From the NCBI GenBank assembly GCA_016183065.1, contig JACPFF010000015.1, positions 86,796 to 150,795 on the forward strand: a stretch of DNA of 64,000 nt. Direction: 5' to 3'. Below, piece by piece: positions 13,709 to 43,065 of the stretch (the stretch's first letter is position 1; every line of letters begins with the position of its first letter). The notes beneath the pieces are model-generated. The model was not told where the DNA came from. It saw only the letters and a program-made list of their open reading frames with translations, and did not search any database. The stretch comes from Deltaproteobacteria bacterium. Lineage in GTDB: Bacteria; UBA10199; GCA-002796325; JACPFF01. Both the position numbers and the translations under genes were made by a program.

Positions 13709-15898
13709 CTACTCGCCATTGAGTTGCTTTTCGAGTTTCTTCTTCTCGGCCTCTTTTGCCGCGATCTGCCCCTTGAGATCATCGATCTCGTCGGCGAGTT
13801 CCTCGTTTTTCTCCTCGAGTTGTTCTTCGTCGGAGAGCTCGTTGTAGGCTTGTTCTTTTAATCCGAGTTCCTGTTCAAGGTTGGTAATTTCGTCCTTCAG
13901 CGTTGCCAACTTGTCTTGATCGGAGACATTTTCATCAACCATGGGGGTGAAATCAAAGGGATAGGTCCCGGTAATGGTGTCCCCTTTCACCTCACTCACA
14001 TCGACAGAGGTCCCCGAGGCAATGACCGTATTATTCCCCACCTTGTCGTGGACGTGGGTGATGCCGCCGACCACTTCGACCGGGCTCCCATCGACCAGAA
14101 TGGGTGTGCTGGCGGGGATGCCATGCAGTTCGACCACGAGCTGCTCGTAGCCCTCCATGGTCTGTTGGATGAAGACGAGCTGGAGGACGCCATTATGTTC
14201 CATCAGAATGGCATCGGTAAATCCCTCGGGCATGGCAAAATCGAGACTCGACGGGTCGGACCCGGCGCCGGTCAGGACGATCTTCTCGCCAACGATGAAA
14301 TCTTCAAGGTCCTCCGAATCATAACTGGCCCAATGGAAACTGTCGTCATCGGCGTTCTGAGTACCCCAGGTCATGAGACTCGTTTCCACGCCCTCGTCAT
14401 CCGTCGAGATCTCGAGCTGTTGTTCGAGGACCTCTTTCATCCCACTTGTGCTGAGGGTCGTCTGTCCCAATTCATCGAGAGGAATCCCGAGCGAGTCCAG
14501 ATAGGTCTTCGGGGCGAGAATCACGTCATTCCCGACGGTATCGAAGATCCCCATCGATGTCCCACCGGTCAACGTGACCTGGCTGAAGTCGATCATGTTC
14601 GTCTCGCCATTGCCATAAAAGTTGAGTGTCAATGCCTGGTCGGGATCAAAAAAGCCGTTGATCTTGATGCGCAGCGTCCGTGGGGTGCCATTGGCATCAA
14701 AGCCGACCATGGTGATGATGAGCGCATTGCCACTGCTGGCCGGCTCCGCGCTCGCCATGGTGTAGCCCTTCGGCATATCGATCGAGAGCGTGCCGTTGGT
14801 GACATCATCGGCGTCGATCACGAGGGTGCCACTCTTGTAATCGCTCTGGGAGAGATCCACACCGGTGATAAATGAGGAAGGTGGCGGGGTCTCCAGGATC
14901 TCGGTCGCCCCGGGATTTTCATGTTCCGAGACTGCATCGCCGGCGGAGTTGACGACCTTGTCCTGACTGCCGCCACCGGCACGGATGATGTCGATCCCCG
15001 CACCGCCGTCGATCGTGTCATTGCCGTCGTCGCTCCCAAAGCCGATGGCGCCATTTTCGTTGAAGCCATCGCCGAAGAGACGGTCCTTACCTGCGCCGCC
15101 GTAGATCTTGTCGTTGCCCGCACCACCGACGAGGACATCGTTCCCCTGTGAACCGAGAATGACGTCATTGCCTTGACCACCGAAGACCACAATGCCCCCT
15201 GGTTCACCAAAGGGCGTGCCCCAATTACCATCGCTGACGCGGGCCAGGAGGTGATTGTCGGAGACCAGTTTTTGCGCCTTGTCCGCGCCATAGATGTAGA
15301 ACATCTCCGGCCGGACCGCCATGTTCTTGAGGACGTAAACCTCCTTGGTGCCATCGGTCTTGACGACCTGCACATGGATGTCTTTCCCCACGGTCATGGT
15401 GTTCACTTCTGCAATCGAATCATCGGCCACAAAGGCCAGGGCATTCGAGGTGGCGGGATTGTTCGGATCGTAGCCACTGTTTTCGAGCATGATCGTCCCG
15501 GCATAGGTCCCGCTCATGGCATGCGGGACCCCGGCATCCACGGGATAGGTCTCGAGGGCACCACTCATGTCGTTCCATCCGACCGACATCTGCGCGAGTT
15601 CCTCTTTCACCGCATCAAAATCGACGTCCGTGCCATCGGGATATTTGCCGGTTTTGACAAAGGTCTCGTAGTTGTCCACGAGGGCCTGTTCTGCCTCGAA
15701 GAGTGCCATGGTCTCGGCATATTTGGCCTGGTCTTCCATGGAGAGATACGCGGAAAATTCCCCCGCGTTCTCGAACTCCTTTTTTTGCAGTTCGAGGTCC
15801 TGCTTGAGCTGCTCCAGGGTCAACTGTTCCTCTTGCGAGAGGACGTTGCTCTCCGTCTTTGGTGCTGCTCCGGCCTTGGCGATCCCTTTGATACTCAT
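13709..15898 (-). CDS. RTX-repeat calcium-binding protein
   Basis: 729 residues. A block of RTX nonapeptides (GGxGxDxxx type: GGQGNDVIL, GGAGNDKIY, GGAGKDRLF, DGGAGIDII) spans about residues 239-310 and would form a Ca2+-binding beta roll. The N terminus (about 20-95) is acidic, helical and rich in Glu, Gln and Lys. The last 60 residues are a strong coiled coil (EEQLEEKNEELADEIDD). There is no Sec signal peptide. RTX proteins usually leave by a type I system reading a C-terminal signal, but here the C terminus is a charged coiled coil and no T1SS genes are in the window. It overlaps the upstream 811-residue gene by 4 bases, so the two are coupled. Confidence 0.8.
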   Translation of the reverse strand: MSIKGIAKAGAAPKTESNVLSQEEQLTLEQLKQDLELQKKEFENAGEFSAYLSMEDQAKYAETMALFEAEQALVDNYETFVKTGKYPDGTDVDFDAVKEELAQMSVGWNDMSGALETYPVDAGVPHAMSGTYAGTIMLENSGYDPNNPATSNALAFVADDSIAEVNTMTVGKDIHVQVVKTDGTKEVYVLKNMAVRPEMFYIYGADKAQKLVSDNHLLARVSDGNWGTPFGEPGGIVVFGGQGNDVILGSQGNDVLVGGAGNDKIYGGAGKDRLFGDGFNENGAIGFGSDDGNDTIDGGAGIDIIRAGGGSQDKVVNSAGDAVSEHENPGATEILETPPPSSFITGVDLSQSDYKSGTLVIDADDVTNGTLSIDMPKGYTMASAEPASSGNALIITMVGFDANGTPRTLRIKINGFFDPDQALTLNFYGNGETNMIDFSQVTLTGGTSMGIFDTVGNDVILAPKTYLDSLGIPLDELGQTTLSTSGMKEVLEQQLEISTDDEGVETSLMTWGTQNADDDSFHWASYDSEDLEDFIVGEKIVLTGAGSDPSSLDFAMPEGFTDAILMEHNGVLQLVFIQQTMEGYEQLVVELHGIPASTPILVDGSPVEVVGGITHVHDKVGNNTVIASGTSVDVSEVKGDTITGTYPFDFTPMVDENVSDQDKLATLKDEITNLEQELGLKEQAYNELSDEEQLEEKNEELADEIDDLKGQIAAKEAEKKKLEKQLNGE

Positions 15899-18330
15899 AC
15901 CGTACTCCCGGATGTGTCACCCGCTTCGAATTCTTTTTCGAGCAGGGCCTCTTCCCCCTCGAGGCTTTCGTCCATTGGGACGGATATGCCAAAGACATTG
16001 CGATATTCATCGAAGAAGGCCGTGATGTTATTTTGTGTCTCCTGATAGACCGGGCCGTATTCGTTCCAGGCCTCTTGTTCAAGGAGGTCGCCCTCTGCCA
16101 CCAGGGTCGGGTCTTTGTTGATCTCCTCCAGGAGTGCATTGCGCGCATCGGTATAGGCGTCGACCATCTCCTGGTCGGAATTGGCACTCTCGCCGCTATA
16201 GCCGGTCGGGAGATCATAGACCCCTTCGGTCACGGTAAACTGCAGGTCGCCGCCGGAGATCTTGTATTCATCGTCGTTATACATCCGTTCATTCGAGGCA
16301 TTATCGCCGACGTACTCATCGGCTTCGTCTGTCCCCACCTTGGTCTTGATCGTCCCACCGATCACTTCAATGTCATCGCCCGGTTTCCCCGGTTCGGTCG
16401 GATTGTCGATCATGGTGAGGCCTTCCGGGGTATCGTTTTCCACATACACGCCGGGATTCTCCAGATATCCCTTGGTGGTGCCGCGCTTGCCGTCAGACTC
16501 ATCGAGATATCGTCCCTCAATCTTGCCCAAGGTATGGATGTAGTTTTCATCCCCTTTGCCACCGTTCGTGATCGTCACGTGGGTGACATTGCGGAGGTGC
16601 TTGTTCCCATCGTGTGCAAACACCGCTGTATGGGCATTGCCCGACCCGTTCACAATCGTCGTATACGCGGGATCACCCTTGGTGATGTCGAACTGCTCCT
16701 TCGGGGGGATATCGATGATGCTATTATATTTATCGACATCAATAACCCCATCGATACCGGCAATAATGGGGCCATTGCGGTTGATGACGTCGGCACTTTC
16801 TTTCCAATAGCCATCTTCTGTTAATGTCGGGCCGACATAGCGACCGCCATCGCCAAAAAAATGTCCGAGCGCGTCGCTGTAGCTCCCGCCTGGTGTATTG
16901 AAATATCCCTGATTGGTCGTCGAGAAGAACCCGCTATCGACCGTGAGATGAATGGGGCTCCGGAGCATCCGGTTGGGATCATCTTTGCTCCCCCCAATAT
17001 CGTATCCGCTCGTCAGGGCGATGGACAATGAAGAGGCGTAGACTTCGTCATTGACCGTTCCCCCGCTCGGACTGGGATGTTTGAGCGGCTCGAGATACTG
17101 CTGGTTGCTGGGCGTGATGGTGGCACTGCCGATCTGCATCTTGAAGAGCTGGTTCCCGTCGGCATCATTGAAGATCAGCAGATGGTCGGCCCCGAGTTCG
17201 ATCGCATCGTTTCCTGGCGCGGTATATTTTTTCGACGTGAGGACAACGTCCGCGACCTGTATCTGCATATAGCGGTCGCGGATCTCCTCGGGCGGGGCCG
17301 CGAGCTCGCCGTTTTCCATCCCCCCGGTGTAGACGACATACCGTTCGTCGACGATTTTTGGGGTCCCATCGGCATAGGTCTCGACCCAGAAGGAATTCGG
17401 GATCGGAATCGTGAGAGATGTTTTGAAGGTGTTCGTTGACCCTTCATACGTGTCGACCCATTGAGAGGGCGCGTTTCCCGTGGCATTGACAAACAGGTCA
17501 ACACCTTCCTCAGCATTCGCTGGTGTGGTCTCAAAATTTTTCACACCGGAAGCGCTTAAATCCCAGACGAAATTCGGATTCATGGCATTGCCTTCAAGAA
17601 ATTCTCCCGTCACTGAGTCAAACCGGACTGGCTGCATCGTGCTCTTATTGAGCATGGCGTATTCATCCGTCCCCTGTTCGGTCAGTCGGGTGCCGATGAG
17701 ATACGAGGAGGTCATGGGATTGCCAATAATTCCGTCATTGTTCACGTCGTAGTAGTCGATCTGGGATTCCGGGACGCCGTGGTCATTGCCATATTTGAGG
17801 CCATATTCTTTGGCACGCTCGATCTCGATGGCATAGAGCTTGAGCTGTTCGAGTCGGACCTGCTTCACTTCGGCAATGGCGATGTCGATATTGAGGATTG
17901 CCTTTATGAGCGAATCAAGGGTCTTGACCTCATCCGGCGTGATGGTCCCCTGATGGAGGCGTTCTTCGAGGGCAATTTTTTCGCTCAGATAAATGATCCG
18001 GAGGTCTTCATACTGCTGGAGCACGGTGCCGTCGGCGAACGTGTTCCCCGTAGGGTCCGCCGATTTGCGCAACTCGGCGACCGTGGGGACGCGATAGTCA
18101 GGCGCCATCCCTTGCGAGGCCGCAATAGCCGCATGGAGGGCACCCAAGGGACCGGTGTTCGGATTCTCCACCGGCGGGACGGTCTCGGACGCGACAAATT
18201 GAAACATATCTTCCACCGGATCCACCGGGGTGTCGGCGGCGGTGGACCCCCCACCCAGCGGGAGGGTCTCAGTCCCTTTTGCCGAGGCGGGTGAGAGTAG
18301 AGAAACGGCCTTGAGTGGCTTGATCTCCAT
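15895..18330 (-). CDS. Large acidic protein with an EF-hand-like loop, unknown function
   Basis: 811 residues from ATG 18330, chosen because TCTGGAG precedes it; the frame extends 16 codons further without an SD. The N-terminal 180 residues are low in hydrophobicity, with a Pro-rich stretch and then a helical region. DVNNDGIIG near residue 195 matches an EF-hand/dockerin Ca2+ loop. The rest is Asp/Gly/Asn/Thr-rich and probably beta-structured. No signal peptide or membrane segment. It shares the acidic composition and Ca2+ theme of the RTX protein that follows with a 4-bp overlap, suggesting exported partners. I cannot assign a family. Confidence 0.65.
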   Translation of the reverse strand: MEIKPLKAVSLLSPASAKGTETLPLGGGSTAADTPVDPVEDMFQFVASETVPPVENPNTGPLGALHAAIAASQGMAPDYRVPTVAELRKSADPTGNTFADGTVLQQYEDLRIIYLSEKIALEERLHQGTITPDEVKTLDSLIKAILNIDIAIAEVKQVRLEQLKLYAIEIERAKEYGLKYGNDHGVPESQIDYYDVNNDGIIGNPMTSSYLIGTRLTEQGTDEYAMLNKSTMQPVRFDSVTGEFLEGNAMNPNFVWDLSASGVKNFETTPANAEEGVDLFVNATGNAPSQWVDTYEGSTNTFKTSLTIPIPNSFWVETYADGTPKIVDERYVVYTGGMENGELAAPPEEIRDRYMQIQVADVVLTSKKYTAPGNDAIELGADHLLIFNDADGNQLFKMQIGSATITPSNQQYLEPLKHPSPSGGTVNDEVYASSLSIALTSGYDIGGSKDDPNRMLRSPIHLTVDSGFFSTTNQGYFNTPGGSYSDALGHFFGDGGRYVGPTLTEDGYWKESADVINRNGPIIAGIDGVIDVDKYNSIIDIPPKEQFDITKGDPAYTTIVNGSGNAHTAVFAHDGNKHLRNVTHVTITNGGKGDENYIHTLGKIEGRYLDESDGKRGTTKGYLENPGVYVENDTPEGLTMIDNPTEPGKPGDDIEVIGGTIKTKVGTDEADEYVGDNASNERMYNDDEYKISGGDLQFTVTEGVYDLPTGYSGESANSDQEMVDAYTDARNALLEEINKDPTLVAEGDLLEQEAWNEYGPVYQETQNNITAFFDEYRNVFGISVPMDESLEGEEALLEKEFEAGDTSGSTV

Positions 18331-18503
18331 CGCGACTCCAGAAGGAGCAATTTCCTTGCCAAGATGAAAGGGGAGCATCAGAAATAGTGTATTCTATATG
18401 ACTGAAATTATTGATGAAATTTGTCGAATATTCCAGTCGACGTCTGTCGCAACATCTGCAGGAGGGGGTATTCGCTCCATCATGGGACCCAAAGTCCCAG
18501 GTT

Positions 18504-37337: not shown

Positions 37338-38993
37338 TTAATACCGGAACGCGCTCCGCCCGATAAATTCGCGCAAGATCGAGGTATGCGGGACATCCTC
37401 GGATTGGAGCGGGACAAAGAGGTCGAGGAATCGGAAGAGCCGGAGGGCTTCCACATAGGAGGGATGCTCATTCGGGACCTCGGTCAGGTACCGCTCGGCA
37501 TAGTTCTTGAGAACCGCCTGCTCATAACAGAGTGCGGAATCAAACATGACGTCGGCGTCCTCCTGGAAGGGGTAGATCCACCGCTCTTCGCCCGCACGGA
37601 CACTCGGCCAGATGGTAATGGTCTCTGCGGCATTGGTGCCGCGAAACTTCCAGTCGCGCACGATGCGGCGGATCAATCGGCAATCCGAGGTAAAAATCCG
37701 GTTATGATCATCGATACAGATCTGTGTGAGCGCCGAGACAAAAATCTTGAAGCAACTCTCTCGCGGAATGGCCTCGGCAATGCGGGGGTTGAGGGCGTGA
37801 ATCCCCTCGATGAGGATCACCTGTCCAGCGTGGAGTTGCAATGGATGCGTTTTATGGATGCGTCGACCGCGCGGAAACGAGAAGATCGGGGTCTCCACGA
37901 GCGCGCCCTTGAGCAATTGTTGCAGCTGGGTGTTGAAGAGCCCCAGGTCGAGGGCCTCAACCGATTCAAAGTCATAGCTTCCGTCCGGATGGAGCGGCGA
38001 GTTTTCGCGATTGCGATAATAATTGTCCATGGAGAGGGCCACAGGTTTGAGGCCGATCACCTGTAGCTGAATGGCCAATCGTTTGCTAAACGTGGTCTTG
38101 CCGGACGAGGAAGGGCCGGCAATAAAGAGAAATCGGACATCCCGACGCGCCTTGATCGTATCGGAAATGGCCGCGATCTTTTTTTCGTGCAGGGCTTCGG
38201 CCACGAGGACCACTTCGGACACGGTGCCACCACTGACCATCTCGTTGAGTCGGGCCACATTGGCGACGCCCATGAGCTGTTGCCAGGCCTTGGTCTCCAT
38301 GTAGGTGGCAAAGAGCTTTGGCCGCTGCGGGACCTGATCGGGAAATTCGCCGTTCTTCCCCGGGAACTGCAGGAGGAGTCCGGAGGCATAGGGATGGAGG
38401 CGGAAGTGGTTGATCAAGCCTGTCTGCGGGGCCACGGGCCCATGGACATACCCGATGTATTGATCGATCGTCAGGAGGGGGAGATCGGACCGGCGCATCT
38501 GTCGGAGCAAGAGGACGCGGTCTTGGCGACCGAGGCGCTCAAATATCTGGATCGCTTCCTCGATCGGCGTCCAGACCGGATCGAGTGGGAGGTCGGCGCC
38601 CACATAATCGCGCATGATCTCTTCGAGTCTGGCAATATGCCCGGCGGTCGGTGAAAAACCGATCGGTTCAAAAAAGTAGCTGTCATCGATCGATTGCCCG
38701 ATGACCACGCGGGCCTCCGGATCGAACCGGGCGAGTGCCGCGTAAAAGATCATCCCTGCCGTGCGGCGGTAGATTTCCATCCCCTCGCGCATGGTCGTGT
38801 CGATGGTCGTGATGCGGGCTGCGTGCTGGATGGCACGGTTGAGCCCGCCGATCCGGTTATCGACGACCGCGCCAATGGCCGGTGCCGTGCCAGGATGGGG
38901 GTGGAGTGCCAGCATCTGGGCAATCGTGGTGCCACTGAGGATGGTGATTGGTCGATCATTGAGCAGGACATGCAGCGGCGGGATCGGTGGCAT
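37338..38993 (-). CDS. Nucleoside (uridine) kinase-like protein with TGS-like N terminus
   Basis: 551 residues from ATG 38993 (GAGAGG precedes it). The N-terminal part (about 1-70, LHVLLNDRPITILSGTTIAQML) resembles a TGS/ubiquitin-like domain, and the following region resembles the second domain of ThrRS. The C-terminal half is a P-loop kinase of the phosphoribulokinase/uridine-kinase family: FLFIAGPSSSGKTTFSKRLAIQL near residue 290, VALSMDNYYRNRE, and VILIEGIHALNPRIAE. Proteins with this fusion are annotated as nucleoside kinases of unclear substrate. It converges on the tRNA-Met and lies 89 bp after the caspase-like gene. Confidence 0.82.
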   Translation of the reverse strand: MPPIPPLHVLLNDRPITILSGTTIAQMLALHPHPGTAPAIGAVVDNRIGGLNRAIQHAARITTIDTTMREGMEIYRRTAGMIFYAALARFDPEARVVIGQSIDDSYFFEPIGFSPTAGHIARLEEIMRDYVGADLPLDPVWTPIEEAIQIFERLGRQDRVLLLRQMRRSDLPLLTIDQYIGYVHGPVAPQTGLINHFRLHPYASGLLLQFPGKNGEFPDQVPQRPKLFATYMETKAWQQLMGVANVARLNEMVSGGTVSEVVLVAEALHEKKIAAISDTIKARRDVRFLFIAGPSSSGKTTFSKRLAIQLQVIGLKPVALSMDNYYRNRENSPLHPDGSYDFESVEALDLGLFNTQLQQLLKGALVETPIFSFPRGRRIHKTHPLQLHAGQVILIEGIHALNPRIAEAIPRESCFKIFVSALTQICIDDHNRIFTSDCRLIRRIVRDWKFRGTNAAETITIWPSVRAGEERWIYPFQEDADVMFDSALCYEQAVLKNYAERYLTEVPNEHPSYVEALRLFRFLDLFVPLQSEDVPHTSILREFIGRSAFRY

Positions 38994-39081
38994 AGGCCTC
39001 TCATTGTGCCGAAAAGATGACGAAATGTCACGAGACAATACTGCGCGCGTTGGTCAGCGCAAAACTGAACATCTTTTCATT

Positions 39082-41526
39082 TCATTCGGGAGAGGATATT
39101 TCTGGCGGTATCTCCTCCAAACCCTTCTGATACCTGGGCACTCCTCTTCCATGTTCAAAATCGAGCTCCGAAAAAACAGAAACCGGTGGTGCATAAATGG
39201 TGATCCCCGGTACCCCGCGAAAGATCCGTCGAAAAAACGTGAGGATATTCTCCAGCGGTGCATCATCTGGTGCAACACCTCCACGACCGGCACTACAGGC
39301 AGTCAAAATGACCACGCTCTCCGGTTTCAGTTTTTTCGCGACGATCTTCCATCCCTCGTCGTATAGATCGCCAAAATCAATGGCTCCCTCTTCGTCGGCG
39401 TTGCTGTTCGCGGCACTTCCCAGGGTGATGCGACTGGCCTTCCCATGTCCGGAAATCACCAGGAGGTCAAGGCTTGCATCCGGTAACTGCTGAAAGTGTC
39501 GATAGAGGGTCTCTTCAGAGCGCGTTTCCAGCAGATCAATGTTATATCCGGCATCGCTGGCCGCTTTCATCTGTTGGTGATCCCAGTAGAAAGCCCCATT
39601 CCAGTCGTCATAGGCCGTGGCAAAAAGCGCTGTCGGTTTTTCAGGCACATTTTTCGCCAAGAGCTCTCTGGCCACTGCAATGGAGACGCGGCCAAAATAG
39701 TGGAGCCCTTTCTCCGTTCTCAGCCGTGCAGAGAGCTCCAGCAAAGCCTCCGGAGAGATCTTTTTCATGTCGTCTTCGTCTGAGTGCTGCAATAATTTTA
39801 CCATCTGGCCAATGCCGCCCCCACCTAACCGGGAGTAAAATTCTCGGCGCAGAGTGGGAGAAAAGAGGGTGTTGAACCGTTCAATACCGGAGCCATAGTC
39901 TATGGCCCCCATGTTGGTTTCGACGATGGTGTCCAGTTCCGCAGCGGCTTCCTTCCACGGCAATGGCGCAAGTCCCAAGGTATCGAGCATGTGAAGTCCC
40001 ATATCTAACAAACTGAGGGGATCTTTCTCTTTCGAGGCATGACGGGTGATGGTCTCATACATATAGCGGTCTCCGTCTGCCGGCGTGATCCGCATCTTGA
40101 GCAATAGGCCTCTTGTGGAGTGCAACCTCCGTCGGTCGTACAATGAAGAACGGAAGAGGCTGACGATCAAGTCTCCCTTTTCTGTATCGGAAAGATGCAT
40201 GTTCTGCACAATCGTTGCGGCATCTTTGGCCGCTGAAATGTGCATATGGGGATTGTCCTCAAACACCTCGAAGAGAAGAGACCATCGGTTCTCCAGCGGA
40301 ATCCCAAAGTCCATCAACATCGTGTCAAGCGCAGCAAATTGCTCGAAATCGAGGCCGGCATCAAAGGCATGGAAAAGGAGGTCGCGTTGTCTCTCTCGTG
40401 ACGCCGGGGCATTATTGAGCCAATCTTTTATCTTTGGCAGAGATGCGAAGGGATCGACACGATCGTGCTCCGTCGTTTTTTTCATGGTGAGCATCCGAAA
40501 CCAATCACCTTGTTTTTCGGCGGGAATGCAGTCCAGTCCCTTGAGCGTTTCAACCATGGCTGGAATCGTTGCGATAATGTCCTCTGGATGCGCGTAGGAG
40601 GCCAAATCTTCAAAGAGCGTCATCCTCAAGAGCGTATCCGTTATACCAAGTGCGCTGATGGCATCGACTGCCGCCGGTAAATCCTTTGAAAAGAGAGATA
40701 ATGCGGCTTCCTCTCCCTGCAAGGCGGACTCCGTAGCCGCGTGAAGAAAATGAGCGATATCGCGATCTGGGAGGACCTCGCGCATTTTTTTTATCCCATC
40801 GGAGAGATTGTCGATAGTATCGACCGTTCCGCGGTGCATGAGGGCGATGCTCACTGTCGAGAGGATTTCATGGTTGGTGAATCCAATCTCGCGCAAGAGA
40901 GCGACCAGGACTTCCGCATTGCGAAACAATCGCTCGAAATCTTTGGCCGTGAAGTCTGCCAGCGGTAGACTCCTCATGAAAGCGCTCTGCGCGGATGGCG
41001 ACGAGAGCCCCAACTCGGTGAGGAGATGTGAAAATTGGAGGAACGCGGCAGTGGGGGGGAAATGAGCCATTTGATCCATCGGTCTGTACTCAAGGGCCAG
41101 TGCGAAGATCTCGTCATCACTCATCCCTAGCAACCGAAAGGCCCCTGAAAATTGCCGATATTTTTCCACGATCTGCGAAAAATCGGGAATCGCCCCTTGA
41201 AAGAAAAACGGGGCAAAGAGGAGGAAAATGGTCTGGTATTCGCCATGCACGCCGACCGGTTTCGCCCTGGCGGAGAGATCTTTCAAGGTCTCGTCGGAAA
41301 AGAGTCTCCCGACCAACTGGTGAACGGTTGTGTCATGTGACGTTGCCGTGACCCATTCTGTGAAATGGATGCGGCCATCGCCGTTCAGGTCCACTGCGGT
41401 AAACGCGTCTGACGTCTCGATCCCTATTTCGCTGGCATGCTGGGGCGTGACCTGAAAATCGCGCGTTCCGTCGGCCACGTCGGCCTTTTCAAACGCACGA
41501 AAGCGCTCAATGCGAAAGTCTGCCAT
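39082..41526 (-). CDS. EF-hand / caspase-like (clan CD) protein
   Basis: 814 residues from ATG 41526 (MADFRIERFRAFEK); the frame opens 20 codons earlier without an SD, and the SD at 41526 is also weak. An EF-hand loop, DLNGDGRIHFTE, lies at about 46-57. The middle 550 residues are helical and charged with no family I recognise. The C-terminal 180 residues contain a clan CD-type pair: LDLLVISGHGKASRITLG (His near 694) and VVILTACSAGRGG (Cys near 744), each after a hydrophobic beta-strand, as in caspase-like and CHAT proteases. No signal peptide or membrane segment. Calcium-controlled proteolysis is a reasonable inference. Upstream, TATAAT at 41601-41606 gives a good -10. Confidence 0.7.
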   Translation of the reverse strand: MADFRIERFRAFEKADVADGTRDFQVTPQHASEIGIETSDAFTAVDLNGDGRIHFTEWVTATSHDTTVHQLVGRLFSDETLKDLSARAKPVGVHGEYQTIFLLFAPFFFQGAIPDFSQIVEKYRQFSGAFRLLGMSDDEIFALALEYRPMDQMAHFPPTAAFLQFSHLLTELGLSSPSAQSAFMRSLPLADFTAKDFERLFRNAEVLVALLREIGFTNHEILSTVSIALMHRGTVDTIDNLSDGIKKMREVLPDRDIAHFLHAATESALQGEEAALSLFSKDLPAAVDAISALGITDTLLRMTLFEDLASYAHPEDIIATIPAMVETLKGLDCIPAEKQGDWFRMLTMKKTTEHDRVDPFASLPKIKDWLNNAPASRERQRDLLFHAFDAGLDFEQFAALDTMLMDFGIPLENRWSLLFEVFEDNPHMHISAAKDAATIVQNMHLSDTEKGDLIVSLFRSSLYDRRRLHSTRGLLLKMRITPADGDRYMYETITRHASKEKDPLSLLDMGLHMLDTLGLAPLPWKEAAAELDTIVETNMGAIDYGSGIERFNTLFSPTLRREFYSRLGGGGIGQMVKLLQHSDEDDMKKISPEALLELSARLRTEKGLHYFGRVSIAVARELLAKNVPEKPTALFATAYDDWNGAFYWDHQQMKAASDAGYNIDLLETRSEETLYRHFQQLPDASLDLLVISGHGKASRITLGSAANSNADEEGAIDFGDLYDEGWKIVAKKLKPESVVILTACSAGRGGVAPDDAPLENILTFFRRIFRGVPGITIYAPPVSVFSELDFEHGRGVPRYQKGLEEIPPEISSPE

Positions 41527-41739
41527 ATTCTCATTATCGGCTGAGAACTTGGGTGGTGTTGCCTGAAATGATGTGCATATAACCACTGGATATTGTTTAG
41601 ATTATATCCCTATTTTCTTGTGTGACCCGCACGACAGAAGCCGTCTGGTAGCCTACCAGCCCGGCAGGATAATCCTTGCATTATCCGAACAGGAGGGTAG
41701 GAGACGCTGGCAGAACGTGAGGATGCGCCAGGAGTGCCT

Positions 41740-43065
41740 GTGAAGCCGGTGATCGCCATCATTGGTCGTCCCAATGTGGGAAAATCGACCCTCTTTAACC
41801 GACTCATTGGTCGTCGACAGGCCGTGGTCCATAATGCACCCGGCGTAACGCGCGACCGCCTCTTTGGGACGTGCGAATGGAATGGCGCCCGGTGGCAGGT
41901 CGTCGACACCGGGGGGATGGCGATGGGGGAAGACACGCTCTCGCGGCAGGTCATGCAACAGAGCCGGCAGGCCATGGCCGATGCCGATGTCATTCTCTCC
42001 CTCTTCGACGGACGATCCGGCCTGACACCACTCGATGCAACGGTCGTGGAGGCGGCACGCGGCACGGGTCGGCCCGTCCTCTTTGCGGTCAACAAGTGCG
42101 AGACGGACTGTCAGCCGCCCGAGGAGTTTTACCGGCTCGGCGTCGATCCACTCTTCGGCATTTCCGCAGAGCATGGCCTGGGAATTGATACCTTGCTCGA
42201 CGGGATCGCAGAGGTATTGGCCACACACCACCCCATACCATCGGACGAGGCGACAGCGGGAGAGGAAGGCCTCCTACGGGTGGCGCTCATTGGACGCCCC
42301 AATGTGGGGAAATCGACGCTCGTGAATACACTCGCCGGGGAAACCCGAGTGGTTGCCCATGACCTGCCGGGGACCACGCGCGACGTGATCGATGTCGATA
42401 TTACGCGGCGAGGGGAGCGGGCATTGCTCCTCGATACCGCCGGCATTCGCCGCCGGGCGAGGATCCCGGAGGCGATCGAAAAATTCTCCGTGATCAAGGC
42501 GCTCCGGGCCATGGAACGCGCGGATGTCGTGGTCATTCTCACCGACGCGACGGAAGGGATGACGCATCAGGATCGCGCATTGGCTGCAGAAGCAGTGGCG
42601 CACGGTCGCCCCACGATCCTGGCGCTGAACAAATGGGACAGGGTGCAACAGCAGCCTGAGGCGCCGTCGGCCAGGGAGTATATCGAGGGAGTGGCCCAGA
42701 TCATGGGCGCCCTGCGACGGATTCCCACGCTCCTCCTCTCGGCAAAAGAGGGGACGGGTGTCGATCCCTTGTGGCAGACGGTCCAGAGCCTCGGAGGGGC
42801 CTCGCAGCGTCGACTCCCCACCAGCGTCCTCAATACGGTGATCGAACGTGTACAGCAGCAACACCATATTCCGGTCCATCGTGGCCATAATGTCAAACTC
42901 TACTACGCCACGCAGACCGGTGTGCATCCCCCCCGCGTCGCCTGTTTTACGAATTTCCCGGACGCGATTCCGCAGAGCTATCGCCGGTACCTTCTGCGCG
43001 CGCTCGAAGAGGCCTTTGAAAGCCCGGGCCTCCCGATCCGCCTCACATTCCGCAAAAAATCGTGA
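41740..43065 (+). CDS. der: GTPase Der (EngA), 50S ribosome assembly factor
   Basis: 441 residues with two consecutive GTPase domains, each with a complete G1 motif (IIGRPNVGKSTLFNRL near residue 7, LIGRPNVGKSTLVNTL near 185), VDTGG / LDTAG G3 motifs and NKCE / NKWD G4 motifs, then a KH-like domain. GTG 41740 is preferred over GTG 41734 because AGGAG lies 5 bases before it and the protein then begins with the usual MKPVIAIIGRPN. It overlaps by 4 bases the frame that leads into the diadenylate cyclase, whose better start is 72 bases downstream. Confidence 0.96.
   Translation: MKPVIAIIGRPNVGKSTLFNRLIGRRQAVVHNAPGVTRDRLFGTCEWNGARWQVVDTGGMAMGEDTLSRQVMQQSRQAMADADVILSLFDGRSGLTPLDATVVEAARGTGRPVLFAVNKCETDCQPPEEFYRLGVDPLFGISAEHGLGIDTLLDGIAEVLATHHPIPSDEATAGEEGLLRVALIGRPNVGKSTLVNTLAGETRVVAHDLPGTTRDVIDVDITRRGERALLLDTAGIRRRARIPEAIEKFSVIKALRAMERADVVVILTDATEGMTHQDRALAAEAVAHGRPTILALNKWDRVQQQPEAPSAREYIEGVAQIMGALRRIPTLLLSAKEGTGVDPLWQTVQSLGGASQRRLPTSVLNTVIERVQQQHHIPVHRGHNVKLYYATQTGVHPPRVACFTNFPDAIPQSYRRYLLRALEEAFESPGLPIRLTFRKKS

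What the first reader, a model, noticed from the sequence alone, without database searches (positions are those of the whole stretch)
39082..41526. EF-hand protein with a caspase-like His/Cys pair
An 814-residue protein joins an N-terminal Ca2+ loop (DLNGDGRIHFTE) to a C-terminal ISGHG ... TACSAG pair, with a 550-residue helical middle part of unknown type. Such an arrangement would make a Ca2+-responsive protease. It stands alone with its own promoter (TATAAT at 41601-41606) and a GGATAT/ATATCC inverted repeat over the -10. It could be an effector of regulated cell death, defence, or secretion. The RTX and EF-hand-like genes near 14-18 kb share the Ca2+ theme.
Basis: partly seen in the sequence, partly recalled or inferred. 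Interest (0 to 1): 0.6.

Follow-up and report, generated by a model that had tools for sequence, protein, structure and literature searches.

The report
Calcium-loop protein with caspase-like protease end
This bacterial gene encodes a large protein that joins a calcium-binding loop and a long helical arm to a caspase-like cysteine-protease domain; it belongs to an apparently undescribed protease family found in half of the sequenced relatives in its phylum, and is probably a protease switched by calcium.

Summary
ORF 39082-41526 (-) encodes 814 aa with one canonical EF-hand loop (aa 46-57), an all-helical middle and a C-terminal GH(694)G...AC(744)SAG domain. The window protein matches no Pfam or NCBIfam family above cut-off, but its C-terminal domain defines a family: 31 places in 23 of 46 genomes of the phylum. 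In a 30-row alignment only four residues are invariant (D641, E667, H694, C744). In a low-confidence AlphaFold model these follow strands 1-4 of a beta-alpha-beta sheet, as in clan CD. Family profiles align His to His and Cys to Cys with C14 caspases, and with DUF4347 protein Tce1 (PDB 9qpe), a putative cysteine protease. Most of the best structural matches are caspases, though Z (about 8) is near background. Clan CD is well supported, not proven.

An EF-hand recurs at the N-terminus of about 12 members, so the calcium link is real at family level; calcium control itself is inferred. The promoter is weakly supported (no -35), and a co-directional gene starts 43 nt downstream. The role (own-cell protease or exported effector) is undecided. 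EF-hand modules also cap a deaminase, a serpin and HExxH proteins in this phylum.

The parts
39082..41526 (-). coding sequence, 814 aa, EF-hand + helical arm + caspase-like domain
   Evidence: relatives
41356..41391 (-). canonical EF-hand loop DLNGDGRIHFTE (aa 46-57)
   Evidence: same place in full-length relative L067 (DANGDKIITLEE)
41434..41487 (-). probable degenerate first EF-hand (aa 14-31), opposite DSNEDFRIDEAE of L067
   Evidence: by inspection sequences; alignment; inference
39652..41304 (-). all-helical middle (aa 75-625), probably an alpha-solenoid
   Evidence: AlphaFold secondary structure, low confidence; no Pfam family
39127..39645 (-). clan CD (caspase-like) domain, aa 628-800
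39604..39606 (-). D641 (DxNGAF), invariant, after strand 1
39526..39528 (-). E667, invariant, end of strand 2
39445..39447 (-). H694, predicted catalytic histidine, after strand 3
39295..39297 (-). C744, predicted catalytic cysteine, after strand 4
41601..41606 (-). -10-like hexamer TATAAT without a -35; promoter unproven
41588..41609 (-). dyad GGATAT-N10-ATATCC over the -10-like hexamer
   Evidence: 5 matches with up to 2 mismatches in the window, 1.5 expected; this one is perfect

Best explanation
The gene encodes a clan CD cysteine endopeptidase of a family that no searched library names, distantly related to DUF4347. H694 and C744 form the catalytic dyad at the ends of strands 3 and 4. The invariant acidic D641 after strand 1 probably lines the S1 pocket, which would favour cleavage after Arg or Lys (inference by analogy with gingipain Asp163 and with metacaspases). 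The N-terminal EF-hand and the ~550-residue helical arm are a regulatory and binding part: the protein is made latent in the cytoplasm, where Ca2+ is low, and Ca2+ binding by the EF-hand releases or aligns the protease. Shown: homology, invariance of the dyad, recurrence of the EF-hand. Strongly inferred: clan CD fold. Inferred: proteolytic activity, Ca2+ switch, specificity. Undecided: whether Ca2+ enters the own cell on envelope damage (own-cell protease, about 40%) or the protein meets Ca2+ after export (effector, about 35%).
For: Family found in 23 of 46 genomes at 31 places; D, E, H, C the only invariant columns in 30 rows, each at or after the C-terminal end of strands 1-4 in the model, i.e. 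on one edge of a parallel sheet. Element order b-a-b-a-b(H)-a-b(C)-a-b is that of the caspase/haemoglobinase fold (PMC4357240). Caspases fill most of the top VIA-align rows (Z up to 8.5); the caspase-1 and caspase-2 alignments end at model residue 156 = caspase-1 286 and caspase-2 321, which would put C744 (model 155) on the catalytic Cys. hhalign with C14 proteins of the same phylum: E 2e-4, His on His and Cys on Cys. Profile hit to 9qpe_G (Tce1/PA0256) with H694 on His186 and C744 on Cys240 (residue identities and TcdB-like dyad in PMC13323088). DUF4347 matched by 9 of 30 members, best E 2e-8. EF loops in the first 130 residues of 7 family ORFs by regex against 5 of 361 neighbouring ORFs.
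Against: Model confidence is low (pLDDT 53 for the domain, 48 full length). Z about 8 is near the background level stated by the tool, and flavodoxins and dehydrogenases score alike. The window protein alone hits no peptidase family. More than half of the family lacks an EF-hand, so Ca2+ cannot be essential to the domain. Only one of the two EF-hands of this protein looks intact.
Confidence: 0.62

Rival explanations
1. It is an exported or injected effector: the protease acts in or on another cell, and the EF-hand folds or activates it in the Ca2+-rich exterior, as RTX repeats do.
For: The nearest solved relative, Tce1, is a type VI effector without an evident immunity gene. No conserved neighbours, patchy distribution, variable N-terminal halves, and the same kind of N-terminal EF-hand module on a deaminase, a serpin and HExxH proteins.
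Against: No signal peptide by eye; no secretion system was looked for or shown; the relation to Tce1 is distant (E 0.012).
Confidence: 0.35
2. It is a prokaryotic orthocaspase-like protease that acts on the own cell under stress or damage (maintenance or regulated death), with Ca2+ influx as the signal.
For: Metacaspases are commonly activated by Ca2+ (PMC9622860), and archaeal orthocaspases include some with EF-hands (PMC6426788). C14 proteins of this phylum also carry an EF-like loop.
Against: No partner gene or known death effector near any member; no PADLOC hit.
Confidence: 0.4
3. The domain has the fold but a non-proteolytic role (binding or scaffold), the EF-hand being structural.
For: Dead copies exist: the paralogue in the same genome (L084) has His to Gln and Cys to Ala.
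Against: His and Cys are invariant in 30 sequences at about 15-30% identity to the window domain, which is hard to explain without catalysis.
Confidence: 0.12
4. The domain is a different alpha/beta hydrolase or flavodoxin-like fold, and the caspase resemblance is a chance pairing of GHG and CS motifs.
For: Flavodoxin and dehydrogenase rows score close to the caspases.
Against: Dyad placement, invariance, and register with three separate clan CD sets.
Confidence: 0.07

Closest known systems
DUF4347 (PF14252), with Tce1/PA0256 (PDB 9qpe chain G)
   Same: His and Cys fall in the same profile columns; 9 of 30 family members match PF14252, some above its cut-off
   Different: The window protein itself does not match; it adds an EF-hand and a long helical arm, and conserved DxNGAF and E667 positions
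Peptidase family C14 (caspases, metacaspases, orthocaspases; PF00656)
   Same: Strand order, dyad at the ends of strands 3 and 4, Ca2+ theme
   Different: No Pfam C14 match for the window domain (2 of 30 members, E 0.007 at best); no recognisable p10 part; domain at the C-terminus
CHAT (PF12770)
   Same: Caspase-like domain at the end of helical repeats (general knowledge of CHAT proteins)
   Different: Only 1 of 30 members matches, E 0.015; CHAT occurs in 1 of 46 genomes of the phylum
DUF4116 repeat proteins (PF13475)
   Same: Several family members place DUF4116 repeats before the protease domain
   Different: The helical middle of the window protein shows no DUF4116 match and no profile similarity to it

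Membership tests
Clan CD (caspase/haemoglobinase fold) | Core sheet b1-b4 with helices 1-3, His after b3 and Cys after b4 | tested here: met
   Element order and placement of H694 and C744 in the AlphaFold model, fold definition from PMC4357240; low-confidence model, coordinates not available for distances
Clan CD (caspase/haemoglobinase fold) | His-Cys dyad conserved across homologues | tested here: met
   Invariant in 30 rows; lost only in paralogue L084
Clan CD (caspase/haemoglobinase fold) | Structural match to solved members | tested here: inconclusive
   Caspases dominate, but Z about 8 with unrelated folds close behind
Clan CD (caspase/haemoglobinase fold) | Thiol peptidase activity | not testable with these tools
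   needs purified protein
Peptidase C14 (PF00656) | Match to the Pfam model above cut-off | tested here: not met
   No hit for the window protein or its domain; none in its genome
DUF4347 (PF14252) | Match to the Pfam model above cut-off | tested here: not met
   No hit for the window domain; relatives match, best E 2e-8
DUF4347 (PF14252) | Dyad in register with Tce1 His186/Cys240 | tested here: met
   hmmsearch alignment of A5 to 9qpe_G with residue numbers from PMC13323088
CHAT (PF12770) | Match to the Pfam model | tested here: not met
EF-hand | 12-residue loop with D1, D/N3, D5, G6, hydrophobic 8, E12 | tested here: met
   D46 N48 D50 G51 I53 E57; PF00036 E 0.0014, below curated cut-off
EF-hand | Ca2+ binding | not testable with these tools
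   needs calorimetry or a shift assay
ING-type N-terminal EF-hand module of this phylum (profiles A7/A8) | Window N-terminus found by a profile built without it | tested here: not met
   Profile without window and L067 finds neither; A7 finds no match in G000

The most novel reading that the evidence does not exclude
In this phylum, N-terminal EF-hand modules cap a repertoire of effector enzymes (caspase-like proteases, adenosine deaminase, serpin, HExxH and transglutaminase-like proteins), so that Ca2+ serves as a common on-switch or export tag: a modular, calcium-gated effector system.
Probability: 0.18. Interest if true: 0.8.

Novelty: new variant of a known kind. Interest (0 to 1): 0.5.

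Why it matters
If true, a phylum known here only from draft genomes holds a large, unannotated family of caspase-like proteases, many with a built-in calcium sensor. It would widen clan CD, give DUF4347-type domains a regulated form, and offer a bacterial test case for Ca2+-switched proteolysis outside metacaspases. The invariant Asp, Glu, His and Cys give direct targets for testing.

Tried and rejected
Pfam, NCBIfam, PADLOC and PHROGs on the window protein: no family above cut-off. Peptide-pattern search of genome contigs with the window protein: nothing; with profile A2: 3 loci. Viral contigs, plasmids, phages: nothing. Conserved gene neighbours: none. That the window N-terminus belongs to the ING-type EF-hand module: not supported when it is left out of the profile. 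That the helical middle is made of DUF4116 repeats: no profile similarity. Sigma-70 promoter: no paired hexamers. An apparent DUF4347 hit in the own genome (L096) is a helical protein without the dyad. CHAT and C80 do not appear in the 50 rows of the fold comparison, which does not exclude them.

Full report
What is there. The minus-strand ORF 39082-41526 encodes 814 aa from an ATG at 41526. It lies between a divergent Der-like GTPase gene (41734-43065, +) and a co-directional uridine-kinase-like gene (37338-39038, -), only 43 nt downstream (both named from their sequences by general knowledge). Its G+C (53.1%, GC3 0.60) is the lowest of nine window genes sampled, as expected for a lineage-specific gene. 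The genome is a 2-Mb assembly in a phylum with 46 held genomes; I did not establish its name.

Family. The window protein alone matches only EF-hand models, below their cut-offs. tblastn in the phylum gave eleven genomes (own included) with matches, mostly to the C-terminal 150-200 residues. Only one relative, L067 (= L003) in another family of the same order, aligns in both the N-terminal and the C-terminal part, and it has two EF-hands at its start. A profile of the C-terminal domain (A1) then found 31 places in 23 of 46 genomes, and one more relative turned up in a metagenome-derived genome, L087. N-terminal parts vary: helical arms, DUF4116 repeats, EF-hands.

Active site. In the 30-row alignment A5, the only invariant columns are D641, E667, H694 and C744 of the window protein. 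The exception in the wider set is L084, a DUF4116 protein of the same genome, with His to Gln and Cys to Ala: probably a dead copy. In the AlphaFold models the order is b1 (632-638), helix, b2 (662-668), helix, b3 (686-693) then H694, helix, b4 (733-743) then C744, helix, b5. The four invariant residues sit after or at the ends of strands 1, 2, 3 and 4, one edge of a parallel sheet, which is where clan CD enzymes keep their dyad (PMC4357240). The domain model is of low confidence (mean pLDDT 52.9; most core strands are at 65-84), since only four sequences could be used.

Clan. Foldseek and VIA-align list caspase-3, -7, -1, -2 and -11 most often, Z up to 8.5, with flavodoxins and dehydrogenases close behind; taken alone this is only suggestive. 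The alignments to caspase-1 and caspase-2 end one residue after model residue 155 (C744) and one residue after their catalytic cysteines (caspase numbering from general knowledge). Profile comparison with six C14 proteins from the same phylum pairs His with His and Cys with Cys (E 2e-4 for a single comparison, probability 46%); a DUF4347-type protein of the phylum, L090, also aligns in register (E 7e-5). The profile also finds PDB 9qpe chain G (E 0.012), with H694 and C744 on chain residues 77 and 131 (counted from the alignment). That chain is the C-terminal domain of Tce1 (PA0256), resolved from residue 110, so these are His186 and Cys240, the dyad its authors align with the clan CD protease domain of TcdB (PMC13323088). 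Nine of 30 members match DUF4347, best E 2e-8. Several lines of modest strength agree; I put the clan CD fold at about 0.85.

Calcium. The loop DLNGDGRIHFTE has every standard ligand position save a His at position 9. An EF-loop pattern occurs in the first 130 residues of 7 family ORFs against 5 of 361 neighbouring ORFs; by eye about 12 members have an N-terminal EF-hand. On the tree the EF label needs at least six changes (two forced by well-supported branches), so it has probably been gained or lost repeatedly. C14 proteins of the same phylum also carry an EF-like loop after the catalytic cysteine. Ca2+ control of proteolysis is known for metacaspases (PMC9622860). It remains an inference here.

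Role. There is no signal peptide by eye, no conserved neighbour, no defence-library match, and no copy in phages or plasmids. This fits either a free-standing own-cell protease or an effector. A second profile, of an N-terminal module 'M..F.ING' plus EF-hand pair seen in eight protease members, also found proteins with an adenosine deaminase domain (Pfam E 7e-29), a serpin (3e-68), HExxH motifs and a transglutaminase-like end (the last two by eye). This suggests EF-hand modules as a shared cap on enzymes. But a profile built without the window protein and L067 finds neither of them, so the window gene cannot be filed with that module on present evidence.

Verdict. It is a new variant within clan CD, most likely a Ca2+-regulated cysteine protease; activity, Ca2+ control and role await experiment.

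Noticed in passing
L133, L140, L117, L139, L113, L119, L114 (genome-search loci): An N-terminal EF-hand pair module (M..F.ING...) recurs in this phylum on an adenosine deaminase, a serpin, two HExxH proteins, a transglutaminase-like protein and giant helical proteins, none with an evident signal peptide.
   Followed up: partly
L084:6264-7775 (own genome, contig C9): DUF4116 protein with a degenerate copy of the caspase-like domain: catalytic His is Gln and Cys is Ala.
   Followed up: partly
L101, L102, L103, L104: C14-like proteins of the phylum that join a caspase domain, in three of the four an EF-like loop, and a thioredoxin-like domain (Pfam-checked in L101 only); L102 and L104 also seem to carry helical repeats.
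   Followed up: partly
window 41667-41686: Perfect dyad GGATAATGCAAGGATTATCC in the same spacer as GGATAT/ATATCC at 41588-41609; the two resemble each other and could be operators. 0.11 such matches expected in the window.
   Followed up: partly
window 13709-15898 and 15895-18378: Two adjacent, slightly overlapping minus-strand genes, one with RTX-type GGxGND repeats, the next with a DVNNDGIIG loop; neither starts with an evident signal peptide.
   Followed up: no
L081, L082: Family members whose N-terminal part holds DFDHNGLVDFAYV / DWNGDGRIDMAYV stretches (FG-GAP-like, Ca2+-type loops) instead of EF-hands.
   Followed up: no
L069:8955-10235: Caspase-like gene split by an in-frame TAG just before the GHG motif (G037), possibly a pseudogene or a sequencing error.
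   Followed up: no
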